A stretch of 61,779 nucleotides of DNA, taken from assembly GCA_938034385.1 (NCBI GenBank), contig CALHLC010000005.1, forward strand, positions 1-61,779, in the 5' to 3' direction. The translations under genes and the position numbers were made by a program. The DNA comes from an uncultured Bacteriovoracaceae bacterium. Its GTDB lineage: Bacteria > Bdellovibrionota > Bacteriovoracia > Bacteriovoracales > Bacteriovoracaceae. Below, in pieces: positions 55,065 through 61,779 of this stretch (positions are counted from its first letter, which is position 1; every line of letters starts with the position of its first letter). The notes under the pieces were generated by a model, which saw nothing but the letters and a program-made list of their open reading frames with translations, did not search any database and had not been told where the DNA came from.

Positions 55065-55835
55065 GTGAAATTTTTATTATTAAGTTCTCTAAGTTTATTA
55101 CTAACAATTGGTTGTAATCCAAATAAAAAAGCTGGAAGTACTGTTTCTAAAGCTGCAAGTGCAGTTAGTTTAAATAGTGAAGAAGATAAGATTTTTTATT
55201 CTATGGGAGCGATGATGGGACAATCTCTTACTCGTTTGAAGTTAACGGATAAAGAGTTTGGTGCTCTTCAAAATGGTTTAGTTGATTCAGCTCATGGAAA
55301 AAAGTTAGCTGTTAATCCATCTGAACACCAAGCAAAGATTCAAGAAATGTTTAAATCTAGAATGGAAAAAATTGCTGCTCAACAAACTAAAGAAGGTACA
55401 GGGTTTTTGGCTAGTTTTTTGAAGAAACCAGGTGCTAAGAAAACTGCCTCTGGACTTGCTTATGTTGTAGAAAAAGAAGGGACAGGAAAGTCTCCTAAAG
55501 AAACTGATACGGTTGAAGTTCATTACCATGGAACTTTAATGGATGGAACAGTTTTTGATTCATCTGTTGATAGAAAACAAACTGCAAAGTTTCCTCTTAA
55601 CAGAGTAATTAAAGGATGGACGGAAGGTCTTCAATTAATGAAAGAAGGTGGGAAAACAAAGTTTGTAATTCCATCAGAGCTTGCCTATGGAAAAATGGGT
55701 GCACCTCCTAAGATTCCAGGTGGAGCGACTTTAGTATTTGATGTTGAATTAATTAAGATTCATGATGCGAACTCTGAACAAGCTAAAGCTGCTATGCCTG
55801 CTGGTCATACAAAAGATGATGGTCACGGTCACTAA
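55065..55835 (+). CDS. FKBP-type peptidyl-prolyl isomerase lipoprotein
   Basis: A GTG start six bases after AAGGA. The 256-residue lipoprotein (KFLLLSSLSLLLTIGC) has an FkpA/Mip-like helical N-terminal domain and a full FKBP domain (VEVHYHGTLMDGTVFDSS, VIKGWTEGLQLMKEGGKTKFVIPSELAYG, IPGGATLVFDVELI). The C-terminus is histidine-rich (HTKDDGHGH) and may bind metal. It would fold envelope proteins in the periplasm. A good terminator follows. Confidence 0.93.
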   Translation: MKFLLLSSLSLLLTIGCNPNKKAGSTVSKAASAVSLNSEEDKIFYSMGAMMGQSLTRLKLTDKEFGALQNGLVDSAHGKKLAVNPSEHQAKIQEMFKSRMEKIAAQQTKEGTGFLASFLKKPGAKKTASGLAYVVEKEGTGKSPKETDTVEVHYHGTLMDGTVFDSSVDRKQTAKFPLNRVIKGWTEGLQLMKEGGKTKFVIPSELAYGKMGAPPKIPGGATLVFDVELIKIHDANSEQAKAAMPAGHTKDDGHGH

Positions 55836-55905: not shown

Positions 55906-56040
55906 ATAGAAACATTTTACTTTATGAGACATGGGGAAACTGATTGGAATAGGACAGGAGTATTTCAAGGGACTAATGATATACCATTAAATGACACTGG
56001 TAGGGAGCAGGCATTAGTTACATCTGAGAAGTTAAAAGCC
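55906..56040 (+). pseudogene. 5' fragment of a histidine phosphatase gene
   Basis: This frame encodes [15 protein letters not shown], then [17 protein letters not shown] and SEKLKA, the unmistakable start of a histidine-phosphatase (phosphoglycerate mutase-like) protein with the RHGET catalytic motif. Homology stops at about 56040; the frame runs on to TAA 56098 with unrelated residues that are antisense to the next gene. The usual ~150 further residues, including the second catalytic histidine, are missing. The first ATG is at 55924; family members usually begin six residues earlier, at an ATA here. This marks the left edge of an insertion or deletion. Confidence 0.8.
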
Positions 56041-57636
56041 CTGGTTTATAAAACGAATTCTTTCTTTGTAGTACAAATATGTACTTCCAACTCTATCTAA
56101 CAACATTATCAGCATTGAAAGGTAAATGGCAGTCTTAACTTGAGTAGCCCCTCCAACATAGAGTGATCCAAGAACTGTTCCCTGACAAAATAAATTATAT
56201 GAAACAATACCGAGGCCAATACTTTTAAAAGTTGAGAAAACACCCCAAACTGAATTATTGTAGTGAAACCTATCTAGTGCTTCATCATTTGTTTTAATAA
56301 TATTTTCACTGAACTTCTCATCATAATTCATCTGAATACTTAGTAATTGTTGGAAAGCATCAACGAACTCATCACTCACGGGAGCGTCTTTGTCGTAATT
56401 AACTTCTTTTAAAATCTTTGCAATCTCTTTATCTGGAGTGTTGGAGTTATTTATACGATCAAAAATCTTAGAAATGACTTCACTCTTTGAAAACTCCTTA
56501 ATGATATCTTTTAGCTCGTTGACTTGAACTTTAGGAAGATCAGTTTGTAATTTATCCACAAACTTCATATCATAAGCCTTTGCCTCTGCACCATTCATTA
56601 CAGTTCGGTAGAGATATTCAACAAAAAGTCTTTCGACATTATTTAATTTCTCAGTTGTAATAATTTTTGTTCCAATTGCAGTTCCTATAATAGTAACGAT
56701 TAACTCTAGACCAAATTTTTCGAAAGATTCTTTTGAAAATGCATCTTCGGCATTTTTAATACCTAGCTCAGAGTATAAATAGCCTCCCATCACTGAAGCA
56801 AACCCCATGGCATAGACAAGAGATTTGTATTTGGAGGAACTTGATTTAAAGAGAGTAGGTTTAAGAGTTCGTGCCTTACACATTAATTTTTGAGATTTAT
56901 ATCTATTAGAATAGATATTTGCTTGCTGCTCAGGGACACCTCTGTTTTTTAAAGATTTATTAAACTTATTCATCTTTGTATTAATTTTTTGATATTTGAC
57001 AGCAATCTTTTTTTGTTTTTTTGATAGTGAGTTAATATTCGTTTTATTTTTAAAATGATTATAGATGTCTTGTATTGAGTTTACGGTAGTATATTTATCA
57101 AAAGAGCTTTGATGATCAGCCAGGAAGAATAAATCTACAAGGAGATCCACATCTTGTTTTGAATCGATTGGTAGGTGAGAACTGTTTATTTGTTTTTTCA
57201 AGAGAATGAGATCTGAGATCTGAAGTTTTTTTAAAAAATCACTTCTTTCTAAAAAATGATTCTGAAGAGAAGTCCCGATTTGAAATCTTGAAATGATATC
57301 TCTCTTTTGATGATCTGGTTTTATAGTTTTATTTAAAGCAGTATATATTTCATTGAAATATGTAAAATCATCAGTTGAGTTTTCGAGTTTCTTTAGTCTA
57401 GTTGTAAGATAATCAATAGTTCTTCTATCTAAAACATTTTGTTCTAGGCCATTTTTTAAAAGGTTGACGATAAGGTCTTTTTTGTCTTTTGAAGAGAAGT
57501 AGTTTTGAAAAACATTTAATCGAGTTTTATAATAACGATAGGAATGAACCATCTCTCTTTTTTTCATAAAGTAGTTACAAGGTGTAGCCATCAAGGAAAT
57601 TGAAAAGATTAGAATTATGCTAAATGTTTTATTCAC
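56032..57636 (-). CDS. Large membrane-associated hypothetical protein of the island
   Basis: The ~534-residue product starts best at GTG 57636, where a signal-like segment begins ([19 protein letters not shown]); GATAAT lies six bases before it, with CTGACT 17 bases further upstream. An ATG at 57720 is an alternative. The body is helical and lysine-rich, with hydrophobic helices around [31 protein letters not shown] and a C-terminal set ([20 protein letters not shown] and [15 protein letters not shown]). I recognise no family. Its 3' end abuts the truncated phosphatase, so it arrived with the island. Confidence 0.65.
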
Positions 57637-57739
57637 CTTCTTATTATCTAGAAAATGGGTATGAAAGTCAGTGTTAGGAAGGAAGGTACTTGAGTGTATT
57701 ACTTCTGCATGGTTTTTCATAATATTGTATGATGAATAG

Positions 57740-58714
57740 ATGAAATATTTAATTTTAATATTGATTTTAAGTTGTAGTGTTTTTGATACTGATGGGAACT
57801 TGAGGGGTGTAGCTGCTGAACAGAACTCTAAAGATTCTATTAAAAAGCATCCCAAATATAAAGAAGCCCTTAATAGCTTAGTTGAGGATATGCAGCCTTT
57901 GATTACTATTGTCTCAACACCTCGTTGGATCTTTAATTACAATGAATATATCGACGAGGAGCAATATAATGCTGAAGTTAAGAAGGGCGGCGGCGGAGTT
58001 TCTCCAAAGAGTAAGTCTTTTATAGAAACGGGGAAGTATCAGGCAAAGTCTTTTTTCAGAACTCATGAATTTCCTTCTGGAGGACTTGCTGGCAATGGGA
58101 TGTACTTTTTTATTGATCCGGATTATTTGGCAGGAAGATATACAAATAGTGAATATCCATTAGGAACTTTATTGAAATTACCAGAAGGTACGAAAGTTTT
58201 TAGTTCACAAGTGACGAAGTTCCTATCTGAGAAAACAGTAAGCTTGTTAATGGAAGTTTTAGAAGTAACGATGGCCAAATCAGGTTATCAAAAAACAAGC
58301 TTTGAGCATTTACTCTCAAGTGCGAGAGGCAAAGACGCTGAGATTATATATGATGCCGTAAAAAAATGTAAGATTGATCTGTTTACTTATAAATATGAAT
58401 ACTCAAGGTTTCTGGGCATAAGTGGGACTTCTCATAATACGGCCTTTGTTTTAATTAATGAAAAAATATTAAATAAGAAAAATGTTGTCATTTATGATAA
58501 GCATTCACTCTCTAAATATCCTAATGTTAAAGAGATTCAAGTTTTAAAAAAGATGGCGAATGTTTCCTCTGACACTGATGGGAATTTAAGATCTTACTTT
58601 TGGCGAGATGAAGAGTTTGGAGCACCTGTAAGTGATGATGAAATCCAAGGAATTAAAGATAAATATCTTTTTAAAAAAGAGGAACTTATAGAGTTGAAGG
58701 GAAGATATCAGTAA
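57740..58714 (+). CDS. Island lipoprotein A with ADP-ribosyltransferase-like signature
   Basis: A 324-residue lipoprotein (MKYLILILILSCS). It has one copy of a domain shared with the next gene: PRWIFNYN, ETGKYQAKSFFRTHEF, LAGNGMYFFIDP, YPLGTLLKLPEGTKVFS. GNG-x-Y-F-x-x-D-P followed by a strand that starts lLKLP..tkv recalls the second motif of ADP-ribosyltransferase folds (G.G.Yfa.d...); the match is by eye only. DTDGNLR occurs twice (near residues 17 and 278). There is no Shine-Dalgarno site; TATGAT is six bases before the ATG. Its 5' end overlaps the alternative start region of the divergent gene. Confidence 0.7.
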   Translation: MKYLILILILSCSVFDTDGNLRGVAAEQNSKDSIKKHPKYKEALNSLVEDMQPLITIVSTPRWIFNYNEYIDEEQYNAEVKKGGGGVSPKSKSFIETGKYQAKSFFRTHEFPSGGLAGNGMYFFIDPDYLAGRYTNSEYPLGTLLKLPEGTKVFSSQVTKFLSEKTVSLLMEVLEVTMAKSGYQKTSFEHLLSSARGKDAEIIYDAVKKCKIDLFTYKYEYSRFLGISGTSHNTAFVLINEKILNKKNVVIYDKHSLSKYPNVKEIQVLKKMANVSSDTDGNLRSYFWRDEEFGAPVSDDEIQGIKDKYLFKKEELIELKGRYQ

Positions 58715-58780
58715 GAATTTAACCTTACTTTAGGATAGTTAAAAGCCAAGTGATTCTCTCAGGTAGCCTCTCAGGAAATA

Positions 58781-58789
58781 TGCTATTAT
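58781..58789 (+). promoter_or_regulatory. Extended -10 promoter of island lipoprotein B
   Basis: TGCTATTAT is an extended -10 (TGn plus TATTAT, 5/6), ending six bases before ATG 58796. No -35 or Shine-Dalgarno sequence is evident, so the mRNA is predicted to be leaderless. Confidence 0.5.
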
Positions 58790-58795
58790 CATAAA

Positions 58796-60709
58796 ATGAA
58801 ATATTTAATTCTTATAACTCTACTGTTTAATTGTTCGTCCTTTAATAATAAAAATACTTCTAGAGATATTGCTCAATCTGAAGGTCAGAGATTAAATACT
58901 TCTATTAGAAACCATCCTGCTTATGAATTGGCATTGAATAACTTGGTTGATGATTTAAAGCATATAAAAACTCAACTGAATCATGAAAAATGGATATTTC
59001 TCGAAAATACGACTCGTGAACTTGCCGATGATTTTTTAGATTTACAAGAGTCTGAAAAAATGCTCTTTGAGGAGAAAAAAAGCAAATACAAAACTAAAAC
59101 CTATCTTGATGTATTAAAGTCATATGTTGCAGTTGCAGAGCTTAGTTCGGCTTCTCCATTTTTTTCTATTGATCTTTTTTCGAGTCGAAGGGGCTCTTCT
59201 GCTTTTATTGCAAATGGCATCATTGTTCATAAAGTAAAACGCGGAAGTACTTTTATCCCTATGAGACGTTCTCAATTTCTTACTAAGAAAACAATAAGGA
59301 GTCTTTCAATATTATTAAAGTCAAAAGAACGATCGGTTTTACTCAATAAAGACCTTGATTTTTATGACTTCGTTGCTAGACTTCCATCTCAAGTAAAAAT
59401 AATAATTTTTGATGCCTTGAAGAAAATAAATGTTAATTACATTGGAAGGACGTCTTCAAATTATTGTCATAGTCTTGTAGCTAAATCTCTAAATTATAGT
59501 ACTTCTCAAATATGCGGGTTTTCAGTTTTCAATCCAGATCAGCTTACAAAAAAAAATACAATCTTACTTTCAGGAAAATCAGAGTTAAAAGAAAAATATA
59601 GAAAAGAATTTCAGAACTTAGAAAACCTAATGAATAGTACTTTCGTAAGAGGAAAGTTTAATGAGGAACAAAGACTTAGAGAGAAATTGTTACTGAATGA
59701 TACGACTAAAGTAGATCAGCAAAAGGTTGGTTATTTTATTTCAAAGTATTTGTTTAGCTTAGATAAAGAGTTAGTTATAAAGGAGAGAGATTGGAAAGAA
59801 CACCCTGATGATTCAGAAGAAGTGTTGGATCCTCAAGAAGTTTTTAGTGATCAAACTCTTTACCAACAAACATTAAATAGTTTGGTTAAAGATATGAGCT
59901 CTCTCATAAGAGTAATTAAAGAACCTCGATGGATTTTTAACTATAATGCGAATATTAATGTGGATCAATATAATGAAGAGATTGAAAAAGGAGATGGTAC
60001 TCTTTCTCCTGATAATAAATCTTTCTTGGAAACTGGTAGATCTCAAGCAAGAACTTTTTTTAAGTCTCATACATTTTCAGCTGGCATGGCAGGAAATGGT
60101 TTATACTTTTTTATTGACCCTGTTCAACAAATTCGGCACTATTCAAATCGCACTTATCCTTTAGGGACTTTATTGAAACTTCCAAAAGGAACAAGGATTT
60201 TTAGCCGACATGTCCGGAACTTTTTATCTAAACATACTGTATCTTTGATAAATAAATTAGTTGATAAAGGATATTTAAAAGTAGAACAGAGGTATAATTT
60301 TAATGCTTTAATGGATCATTTATATGGAGAGCCAATGATACTAATCTACGATGCTATTAGAAAAAGTAAGATCGATTTATTTTCTTATCAATACTCAGAT
60401 TCAGGATTTTTAAATATTGATAGTTCAAGACATGACACTGCTTTTGTCCTAATTAACGAAGATTTATTAAGTAAAAAAAACTCGGTAATTTATGCTAAGA
60501 GCTCATTTGCTGAAAAATTAAATAATAAAGATATCAAAGTTTTGGATAAAATTGGTCGTTCAGATGCAGGAGCAAGCTTGGGTGATAGGTTTAATATAAG
60601 TCAAAGGACAGGAGAGAGAACGAGTAATGAGGAAATTGGCAAGATAATAAAAAACTATTTCTTCAAAAGAGAAGAGCTTAAAGTATTAAAAGGTAAAAAC
60701 GAAATTTAA
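58796..60709 (+). CDS. Island lipoprotein B, duplicated domain fusion
   Basis: A 637-residue lipoprotein (MKYLILITLLFNCSS). The C-terminal half (from about residue 357) is closely related to lipoprotein A: NSLVKDMSSLI, EPRWIFNYN, MAGNGLYFFIDP, YPLGTLLKLPKGTRIFS. The N-terminal half is a diverged copy (HPAYELALNNLVDDL, KWIF, then RGSTFIPMRRSQFLTKKTI); its GNGxYFF segment has become ASPFFSIDLF, so any active site there is probably lost. The gene arose by duplication and fusion. It ends three bases from the convergent Fic gene. Confidence 0.75.
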   Translation: MKYLILITLLFNCSSFNNKNTSRDIAQSEGQRLNTSIRNHPAYELALNNLVDDLKHIKTQLNHEKWIFLENTTRELADDFLDLQESEKMLFEEKKSKYKTKTYLDVLKSYVAVAELSSASPFFSIDLFSSRRGSSAFIANGIIVHKVKRGSTFIPMRRSQFLTKKTIRSLSILLKSKERSVLLNKDLDFYDFVARLPSQVKIIIFDALKKINVNYIGRTSSNYCHSLVAKSLNYSTSQICGFSVFNPDQLTKKNTILLSGKSELKEKYRKEFQNLENLMNSTFVRGKFNEEQRLREKLLLNDTTKVDQQKVGYFISKYLFSLDKELVIKERDWKEHPDDSEEVLDPQEVFSDQTLYQQTLNSLVKDMSSLIRVIKEPRWIFNYNANINVDQYNEEIEKGDGTLSPDNKSFLETGRSQARTFFKSHTFSAGMAGNGLYFFIDPVQQIRHYSNRTYPLGTLLKLPKGTRIFSRHVRNFLSKHTVSLINKLVDKGYLKVEQRYNFNALMDHLYGEPMILIYDAIRKSKIDLFSYQYSDSGFLNIDSSRHDTAFVLINEDLLSKKNSVIYAKSSFAEKLNNKDIKVLDKIGRSDAGASLGDRFNISQRTGERTSNEEIGKIIKNYFFKREELKVLKGKNEI

Positions 60710-60712
60710 TCT

Positions 60713-61666
60713 TTATTCATTTTTTAAGCTTATTAAACCACAACTTGGCTTTGTTGGTTTCTTTTTATCTGAATAGCTTTGAATACAAGTTGAAAGTATT
60801 TCATTCGTCTTAGAAATACTATCTAATACCCAACCATAATATTCTTGAAAGTCAGCTGAGTAATCATTATTCATGTCTGGAATAAATAGAAATGGAAGAT
60901 CTAACTTAATCGTTACATAGTCCATTAAGAACCTAGACATTCTCCCGTTACCATCTTGGAATGGATGGATAGCAGCAAGTTCTCGTTGTATCGAAATTGC
61001 AAATTGTAAATCATTGATAGTTTTTTGACGTTGGTATTTGGAAACTTTATTGGAGTTTTGTGTAAAATAAGTATTTATTTTATTTACAAGTTTTTTGATA
61101 AGCATTTCGACCTTGTTGGGAGTAGGGTAGTGAACCATGCCACATCTTTTGGTCATACTTGCAATTGATCGAGTAAATGTTTTTTTAAAGAAGTTCTTAA
61201 TCTTATTTAAGAAGCTTGTCTTTACAACTTCAGCTCTAGGCCAGCATGCAAACCAAAACCATCTTGACCAAGAAGGGTTGTCATCTAGGAATAGGTCGTT
61301 TTTTTCGATATTTTTTTTAGCCTCGGCCCATAGTTTATCTTTTTTATAATATTTCAGAGATTGTTGATACAGTTCTTCGCATTGAGGATTGTCAGCTTTG
61401 AGGTCGTAGTTCTTCGCAAGATCATCTCCATCTATAGGGAGATCTTCTTTGCATTGTAAGTCTGTCCACTTAAGGGTTGTTTTATTATCTGAAAAAGTAA
61501 AAGTATTAATATTATGAATTTGTGAGTCTGTTAGGGCCCAGCTTTTTTGGAAGTTCGCTCCATAGTTTAAACTTAATTTTAATTTCCCTGCATTGATTCC
61601 TTCTTTTAACTTTCCACTTAAAGCACTTTTGTGCCACTCTTGACCTTTCCCCCTTATTTCATACCA
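60713..61666 (-). pseudogene. Fic-domain protein gene, 5' end cut by an insertion sequence
   Basis: The C-terminal part carries a Fic domain: GMVHYPTPNKVEMLIKKL, QRELAAIHPFQDGNGRMSR (the HPFxDGNGR active site for AMP or similar transfer) and DYSADFQEYYGWVL. An ATG at 61156 would give 147 residues, but the frame is open and protein-like for a further 170 codons (NPSWSRWFWFACWPRAEVV and more) to a TAG at 61667. That stretch has no ATG, GTG or TTG, and its far end lies in the insertion sequence. The true start was probably lost. Expression from 61156 would keep the Fic motif but little of the fold. Confidence 0.75.
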
Positions 61667-61779
61667 CTATCAAACTCGGTTTAACATAGCTTTTTTCTAT
61701 TTTTATAATTTTAGCTTTGGGTGCAGGTGGCCTGTAATTCAATGAACTATGAGGCCTATAGTGATTATAGTGATACACC
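61641..61779 (-). mobile_element. IS3-type insertion sequence, one end (continues past the window)
   Basis: The window ends inside an insertion sequence whose transposase end is encoded at 61659-61779. Beyond the transposase stop the DNA reads TGACCTTTCCCCCTTATTTC on the plus strand from 61641; IS3-family ends often start with TG and carry a C-run, so 61641 is a candidate terminus. The other end and any target duplication lie outside the window. Confidence 0.65.
61659..61779 (-). CDS. IS3-family transposase, C-terminal fragment
   Basis: Read from the window's right edge on the minus strand, the frame gives VYHYNHYRPHSSLNYRPPAP, then KAKIIKIEKSYVKPSLIVV and TGA. YNHYRPHSSLNYRPPAP is the characteristic C-terminal signature of IS3-family (OrfB, DDE integrase-type) transposases. 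The catalytic part is beyond the window. Confidence 0.85.
   Translation of the reverse strand, partial: VYHYNHYRPHSSLNYRPPAPKAKIIKIEKSYVKPSLIVV

What the first reader, a model, noticed from the sequence alone, without database searches (positions are those of the whole stretch)
57740..60709. Paralogous island lipoproteins with an ADP-ribosyltransferase-like GNGxYFFxDP signature
Two adjacent lipoprotein genes hold three copies of one domain. Two copies keep AGNG[ML]YFFIDP followed by YPLGTLLKLP[EK]GT[KR][VI]F, a layout that recalls the G-x-G-x-Y-f-x-D core of ADP-ribosyltransferase folds; the third copy has lost it (ASPFFSIDLF). The signals predict surface or periplasmic anchoring. Next to a Fic-type gene and in a likely predator, they could be prey-directed or defence effectors. 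The family is not one I know.
Basis: partly seen in the sequence, partly recalled or inferred. Interest (0 to 1): 0.72.

Follow-up and report, generated by a model that had tools for sequence, protein, structure and literature searches.

The report
Secreted PARP-like proteins paired with Fic
Two neighbouring lipoprotein genes of a predator-lineage bacterium belong to an uncatalogued family of secreted proteins related to ADP-ribose-transferring enzymes, a family that repeatedly sits beside, or is fused to, a second secreted protein-modifying enzyme (Fic), which points to an unstudied two-enzyme set in predatory bacteria.

Summary
In detail: two adjacent lipoprotein-like genes carry three copies of one domain, and one copy has lost the motif. 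The ADP-ribosyltransferase (ART) reading holds at the level of homology. The window genes belong to a secreted family that no library searched names (Pfam, NCBIfam, PHROGs, PADLOC). A profile built without the window's clade finds them at E about 1e-25. The family occurs in 52 of 368 Bdellovibrionota genomes. Its consensus first motif is [YF]H[YW], then GxGLYxAxDP. A profile of its ART-Fic fusion proteins and near kin hits the PDB almost only at PARPs (45 of 46 chains, best E 0.003), aligning the catalytic H and Y. Foldseek on the window model ranks ART folds on top, though with weak scores. The window's own copies are divergent: H is N, and the catalytic Glu is missing, as it is family-wide. 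Their activity is therefore uncertain. The unexpected result is the partner. In 16 of 81 family ORFs a Fic gene is directly adjacent or fused (0.15 expected by chance), across several families and in both fusion orders. The most likely reading is paired secreted effectors of predators. Prey targeting and enzyme activity are inferred, not shown. Defence is not supported.

The parts
57740..58714 (+). Single-domain secreted ART-like lipoprotein (W1, 324 aa)
   Evidence: ORF; full-length match to the leave-clade-out family HMM, E 8e-26; AF2 model pLDDT 74, pTM 0.76
57923..57943 (+). Motif 1 RWIFNYN (residues 62-68); N66 sits where the family has His (H 46, N 12, S 5 of 66)
   Evidence: predicted strand 62-67
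58088..58120 (+). Motif 2 AGNGMYFFIDP (residues 117-127); Y122 aligns with the PARP Tyr of GxGxY
   Evidence: predicted strand 121-124
58154..58201 (+). Motif 3 YPLGTLLKLPEGTKVF, strand pair after the Tyr motif
58796..60709 (+). Two-domain secreted ART-like protein (W2, 637 aa)
   Evidence: same two-domain layout in the congener G002 (636 aa, L019)
58796..59815 (+). Degenerate N-terminal ART-like copy, motif lost (ASPFFSIDLF at 59150-59179)
   Evidence: E 1.8e-13 to W1; family HMM only 4 bits
59816..60706 (+). C-terminal ART-like copy with motifs kept (RWIFNYN 59927-59947, AGNGLYFFIDP 60089-60121)
   Evidence: 49% to W1; 84.9 bits to the leave-clade-out family HMM
60713..61663 (-). Fic gene, convergent, 3 bp from W2; core motif HPFQDGNGRMSR intact; 5' part missing at the contig end (ATG-started ORF 60713-61156, open frame of 317 codons)
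   Evidence: full 416-aa secreted homologue next to the ART gene in G002 (L009 9806-11056)

Best explanation
Both genes encode secreted, probably lipid-anchored ART-fold proteins of the PARP-like branch. They belong to a Bdellovibrionota-wide family that works together with a secreted Fic protein. Shown here: common descent of the window copies with the family; sequence homology of the family's fusion-type members to PARP catalytic domains, with the family's His and Tyr on the PARP His and Tyr; Sec-type signals; recurrent adjacency and fusion to Fic. Inferred: the two are exported during predation or contact, reach a compartment with NAD+ and ATP (the prey cytoplasm), and modify prey proteins, the ART-like part using or binding NAD+ and the Fic part adding AMP or a similar group. 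The window clade has lost the His and shows no Glu, so its copies may be weak or altered enzymes, or NAD/target-binding partners of Fic, and the motif-less half of W2 a scaffold domain.
For: A leave-clade-out family HMM finds W1 and W2 at E 8e-26 and 2e-25 over the whole domain. The family is in 52/368 genomes and 30 genera. A profile of fusion-type members plus L031 and L148 against all PDB sequences: 45 of 46 matches are PARPs, aligning FHW with the PARP FHG/FHW and GsGvYfaed with GAGIYFAEN. PF00644 hits members at the same block (L148 E 1e-5, L031 E 0.02). Foldseek of the window model: AcrIF11 first, then diphtheria toxin, with tankyrases among the next, in PDB; ART-PolyVal and PARP-like proteins among the top in BFVD. 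Fic adjacent within 150 bp or fused in 16 of 81 family ORFs, 0.15 expected; fusions ART-Fic (L140, L130, L136, L163) and Fic-ART (L131); the label needs 12 changes on the tree, at least 7 by well-supported branches. 80 of 83 members have an export-type N-terminus against 64% of other ORFs.
Against: No Foldseek match is significant on its own (best E 0.1 in PDB, 0.003 in BFVD), and the W2 model failed (pLDDT 52). The PARP match of the A8 profile is E 0.003, and the broad profile A6 found nothing in the PDB. Window copies lack the catalytic His, and no Glu is conserved. No evidence of NAD binding, secretion into prey or expression. 65 of 81 members have no Fic beside them.
Confidence: 0.62

Rival explanations
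1. The window clade is a catalytically dead ART-fold family (pseudo-enzymes) that binds NAD, ADP-ribosylated targets or the Fic protein, for example as a specificity or regulatory subunit of Fic.
For: His is Asn in all four canonical copies of the clade, Asp155 of the family consensus is Ser in both window copies, the disulfide cysteines are gone, and no Glu is found. Motif-less extra domains are kept in W2 and in G002. Yet RWxFNYN and GxYFxIxP are invariant within the clade.
Against: Asn or Ser replaces His in other members too (12 N and 5 S of 66), so Asn may be tolerated in active proteins. Some human mono-ARTs work without the Glu (general knowledge of PARP10-type triads).
Confidence: 0.25
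2. ART-like and Fic form a self-contained conflict module, with one part restraining the other (toxin and immunity or antitoxin), rather than two co-delivered effectors.
For: Gene pairs with overlapping ends (L096, L097, L107, L114), typical of toxin modules.
Against: Both partners carry export signals. They are fused in one chain in several genomes. Each also occurs without the other. No PADLOC or toxin-antitoxin family matches the ART part.
Confidence: 0.08
3. The domain is not an ART; GxGxY is a chance resemblance in an unrelated lipoprotein fold.
For: Weak individual Foldseek E-values. No PDB match for the broad profile.
Against: PARP-only PDB list, PF00644 hits on the same block, ART folds on top in two structure libraries.
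Confidence: 0.05

Closest known systems
PARP catalytic domain (Pfam PF00644; tankyrases, PARP10/12/15, PARP13/ZAP), H-Y-E class ARTs
   Same: Motif order [YF]H[YW] ... GxGxYxA.DP.S...YG ... strand pair; His and Tyr aligned in PDB profile matches
   Different: Secreted and often Fic-linked; no conserved Glu; His replaced by Asn in the window clade; below Pfam cut-off for nearly all members
AcrIF11 (PDB 6KYF), phage ADP-ribosyltransferase that inactivates CRISPR
   Same: Top PDB fold match of the window model; a diverged ART with key residues H-F-H-D (PMC12421852)
   Different: Cytoplasmic, about 130 aa, no signal peptide, no Fic partner; match is weak (E 0.1, prob 0.57)
ART-PolyVal domains of phage polyvalent proteins
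   Same: Several of the leading BFVD fold matches are ART-PolyVal or polyvalent proteins
   Different: Phage cytoplasmic or virion proteins; no sequence match found in phage collections
Fic/DOC protein AMP transferases (PF02661)
   Same: Neighbour carries HPFQDGNGRMSR and passes the Pfam cut-off
   Different: Secreted here (signal peptide in the G002 homologue) and paired with an ART-like protein

Membership tests
PARP / H-Y-E class ADP-ribosyltransferases | Homology to the ART catalytic fold | tested here: met
   Profile of fusion-type members plus L031 and L148 hits PARPs almost only in PDB; window joined to the family at E 1e-25; fold matches weak but consistent
PARP / H-Y-E class ADP-ribosyltransferases | Catalytic His in strand 1 | tested here: not met
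   Window clade has Asn (N66); the wider family has His in 46 of 66
PARP / H-Y-E class ADP-ribosyltransferases | Tyr in GxGxY block | tested here: met
   Y122, Y in 68 of 70 members
PARP / H-Y-E class ADP-ribosyltransferases | Catalytic Glu in the third motif | tested here: not met
   The position equivalent to tankyrase EYVIY (aligned by eye) is T/A/S, with no conserved acid in any member group
PARP / H-Y-E class ADP-ribosyltransferases | Curated PF00644 score reached | tested here: not met
   Window proteins have no Pfam match; only L148 reaches the edge (28.8 bits, 25.6, cut-off 26.7)
PARP / H-Y-E class ADP-ribosyltransferases | NAD binding and ADP-ribosyl transfer | not testable with these tools
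   needs biochemistry
R-S-E class toxin ARTs | STS motif and ExE motif | tested here: not met
   No such conserved positions in the family alignment
Tpt1/KptA RNA 2'-phosphotransferases | R-H-R-R signature | not tested
   No PDB or Pfam match to this family appeared, but the signature was not scored
Fic/DOC (window 60713-61663) | HxFx(D/E)GNGRxxR motif and PF02661 cut-off | tested here: met
   HPFQDGNGRMSR; 39.3 bits against cut-off 24
Bacterial lipoproteins | Lipobox ending in Cys after a signal peptide | tested here: inconclusive
   LILSC and LLFNC; the second has Asn at -1; most family members have plain export-type N-termini
Known anti-phage defence systems | PADLOC model match | tested here: not met
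   No match for W1, W2 or the 607-aa neighbour; Fic matches only general Fic models

The most novel reading that the evidence does not exclude
Predatory Bdellovibrionota deliver a coupled pair of modifying enzymes, an ADP-ribosyltransferase-fold protein and a Fic protein, sometimes as one polypeptide, that act on the same prey target, for example with one modification preparing or locking the other. Such a two-step modification would be a new effector principle in bacterial predation.
Probability: 0.25. Interest if true: 0.85.

Novelty: new variant of a known kind. Interest (0 to 1): 0.62.

Why it matters
How intracellular bacterial predators take over prey metabolism is largely unknown at the level of enzymes acting on prey proteins. 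This family gives a concrete, genetically linked candidate pair present across the phylum, including a genome of the exact length of the model predator B. bacteriovorus HD100, and none of the libraries or papers searched describes it. It makes a direct test possible: delete the pair, follow predation, and look for ADP-ribose and AMP marks on prey proteins.

Tried and rejected
Pfam, NCBIfam, PHROGs, PADLOC and PDB sequence searches with the window proteins alone gave nothing. Viral contigs, phages and plasmids hold no relative. The broad profile A6 found nothing in the PDB. The second AF2 model (W2 C-terminal copy) was too poor to use. Weak early hits in G017, G037 and G113 (E 0.009, 0.005, 6e-4) were not followed as relatives. 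Phage defence was considered and dropped for lack of any match. A pseudogene reading of W2's N-terminal half was weakened because the congener G002 keeps a protein of the same two-domain layout (636 aa). The possibility that the window Fic gene continues on another contig was tested: no other contig holds its N-terminus. Literature searches for Bdellovibrio with ART or Fic found no description.

Full report
OBSERVATION. The window is a whole contig (C5, 61,779 bases) of a 2.67-Mb genome. Its two congeners with homologues are deposited as Bacteriovoracaceae MAGs. The two ORFs are as described. Three domain copies exist in the genome and no more. The copies at residues 117-127 of W1 and 432-442 of W2 keep AGNG[ML]YFFIDP; the N-terminal half of W2 does not.

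WINDOW CLADE. Direct relatives are rare: only G002 and G003 of the genus carry the full domain. G003 has one 320-aa protein in the same slot between the FKBP-type gene and the HPPD-type gene. G002 has a 636-aa protein with the same two-domain layout as W2, next to a full-length secreted Fic gene. Within this clade RW[IVL]FNYN, GxYFxIxP and PxGT are invariant.

WIDER FAMILY. A profile of the clade found one remote protein in another family (L020, E 2e-6). Adding it opened the family step by step: 22 genomes, then 52 of 368 genomes and 30 genera. To exclude drift, an HMM was built from 68 family domains without the window clade and without L020. It finds W1 at E 8e-26 and W2 at E 2e-25, aligned end to end (search size set to 10,000). 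Reversed ORFs give no hit with the family HMM. The family consensus reads vYHYgs ... aGpGlYaAtDPvsSrsYGg.dwvLleitlpkgtryLdlr ... Y.w ... fC ... afvlin. 80 of 83 members have an export-type N-terminus by a simple rule that also marks 64% of other ORFs, so this is supportive rather than decisive. One member lies in a single-contig genome of 3,782,950 bases, which from memory is the length of B. bacteriovorus HD100 (identification by length is my inference).

ART HOMOLOGY. Three lines agree. First, one bridging protein (L148) is found both by PF00644 (28.8 bits, 25.6, cut-off 26.7) and by the family HMM (E 2.5e-9), and family member L031 matches PF00644 at E 0.02, on the same GxGxY block. Second, a profile of six PARP-nearest sequences (L148, the fused proteins and L031) searched against all PDB sequences returns 46 matches, of which 45 are PARPs, best E 0.003, with FHW on the PARP His motif and GsGvYfaed on GAGIYFAEN. 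The fused proteins L130, L136 and L140 had been found by profile A6, which contained none of them, at per-genome E of 6e-7, 2e-5 and 7e-5. Third, the AF2 model of W1 (pLDDT 74, pTM 0.76, six sequences) has the strand order expected of an ART. Its Foldseek list is headed by AcrIF11 (6KYF, identified in PMC12421852) and diphtheria toxin, with tankyrases among the next. In the viral library, a PolyVal ADP-ribosyltransferase, ART-PolyVal proteins and a PARP-like protein stand near the top. No single structural match is significant alone, and the second model failed.

CATALYTIC RESIDUES. Over about 70 non-redundant members, motif 1 is H in 46 of 66 (N 12, S 5), Tyr of motif 2 is kept in 68 of 70, and the position equivalent to the PARP Glu is A, S or T, with no conserved acid nearby (the third-motif register rests on my reading of the two C-terminal strands, TAFVLINEKIL against EYVIYRGEQ). 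The window clade has N66, and both window copies have S155 where the family has D; the clade lacks the family's cysteines. The family is therefore ART-fold by descent, possibly of a reduced H-Y type, and the window clade is its divergent end. Activity of W1 and W2 is open.

FIC LINK. Searching around family genes, a Fic gene lies within 150 bp, or in the same chain, in 16 of 81 family ORFs. The genomes carry about 2.7 Fic genes each (152 in 56), so about 0.15 such cases are expected by chance. Many pairs overlap by a few bases in one direction, as in operons. Fusions occur in both orders: ART-Fic (L140, L130, L136, and L163 found from the Fic side) and Fic-ART (L131). On a quick tree the Fic label needs 12 changes, at least 7 by well-supported branches, so the link is not one inherited accident. 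The window's Fic gene has an intact active-site motif, but its first ~105 codons are absent at the contig end and found nowhere else in the assembly. This may be assembly damage or a real truncation.

MECHANISM. NAD+ and ATP are cytoplasmic, while both partners are exported (general knowledge). The simplest reading is that they act in another cell: in this phylum, the prey. Shown: homology, export-type signals, pairing and fusion. Inferred: delivery to prey, substrates, activity. For the window pair, an ART-fold binding or regulatory role beside Fic is a serious rival, given the lost His.

NOVELTY. The fold class is known. The family, its phylum-wide presence in predators and its pairing with secreted Fic are not in Pfam, NCBIfam, PHROGs or PADLOC, nor in the papers searched.

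Noticed in passing
window 56032-57855 (-): A 607-aa ORF (TTG start; true start probably later, since it overlaps W1 by 116 bp on the other strand) with helical C-terminal membrane segments; no family match; homologues at other loci in all three congeners and weakly in G008.
   Followed up: partly
window 60713-61779 (-): The Fic gene lacks its first ~105 codons at the contig end; the last ~115 bases of the contig carry stops and no homology, so truncation or a misassembled end.
   Followed up: yes
L009 6637-7815: In G002 a 392-aa lipoprotein with HNH-nuclease-like motifs (DIDHFVPLKNAHLHGAW) lies directly upstream of the two-domain ART-like gene.
   Followed up: no
L043 1848-6978 (G347:C62): Five tandem family copies with MG[TM]SYYAS in place of GxGLYxA; L087 (G254:C36) carries four more in a row: local expansion of the family.
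   Followed up: no
L152-L191: Bdellovibrionota genomes hold many further Fic proteins with export-type N-termini that have no ART-like neighbour; secreted Fic proteins look like a wider expansion in this phylum.
   Followed up: partly
L128 1273-4969 (G002:C12): A congener carries a small ART-like gene followed by two consecutive 477-aa Fic genes.
   Followed up: no
window 55065-55835 and L009 1081-2983: The interval between the FKBP-type gene and the HPPD-type gene is empty in G002, holds PGM plus ART-like in G003, and opens the ART-Fic island in the window: a variable-content site in the genus.
   Followed up: partly
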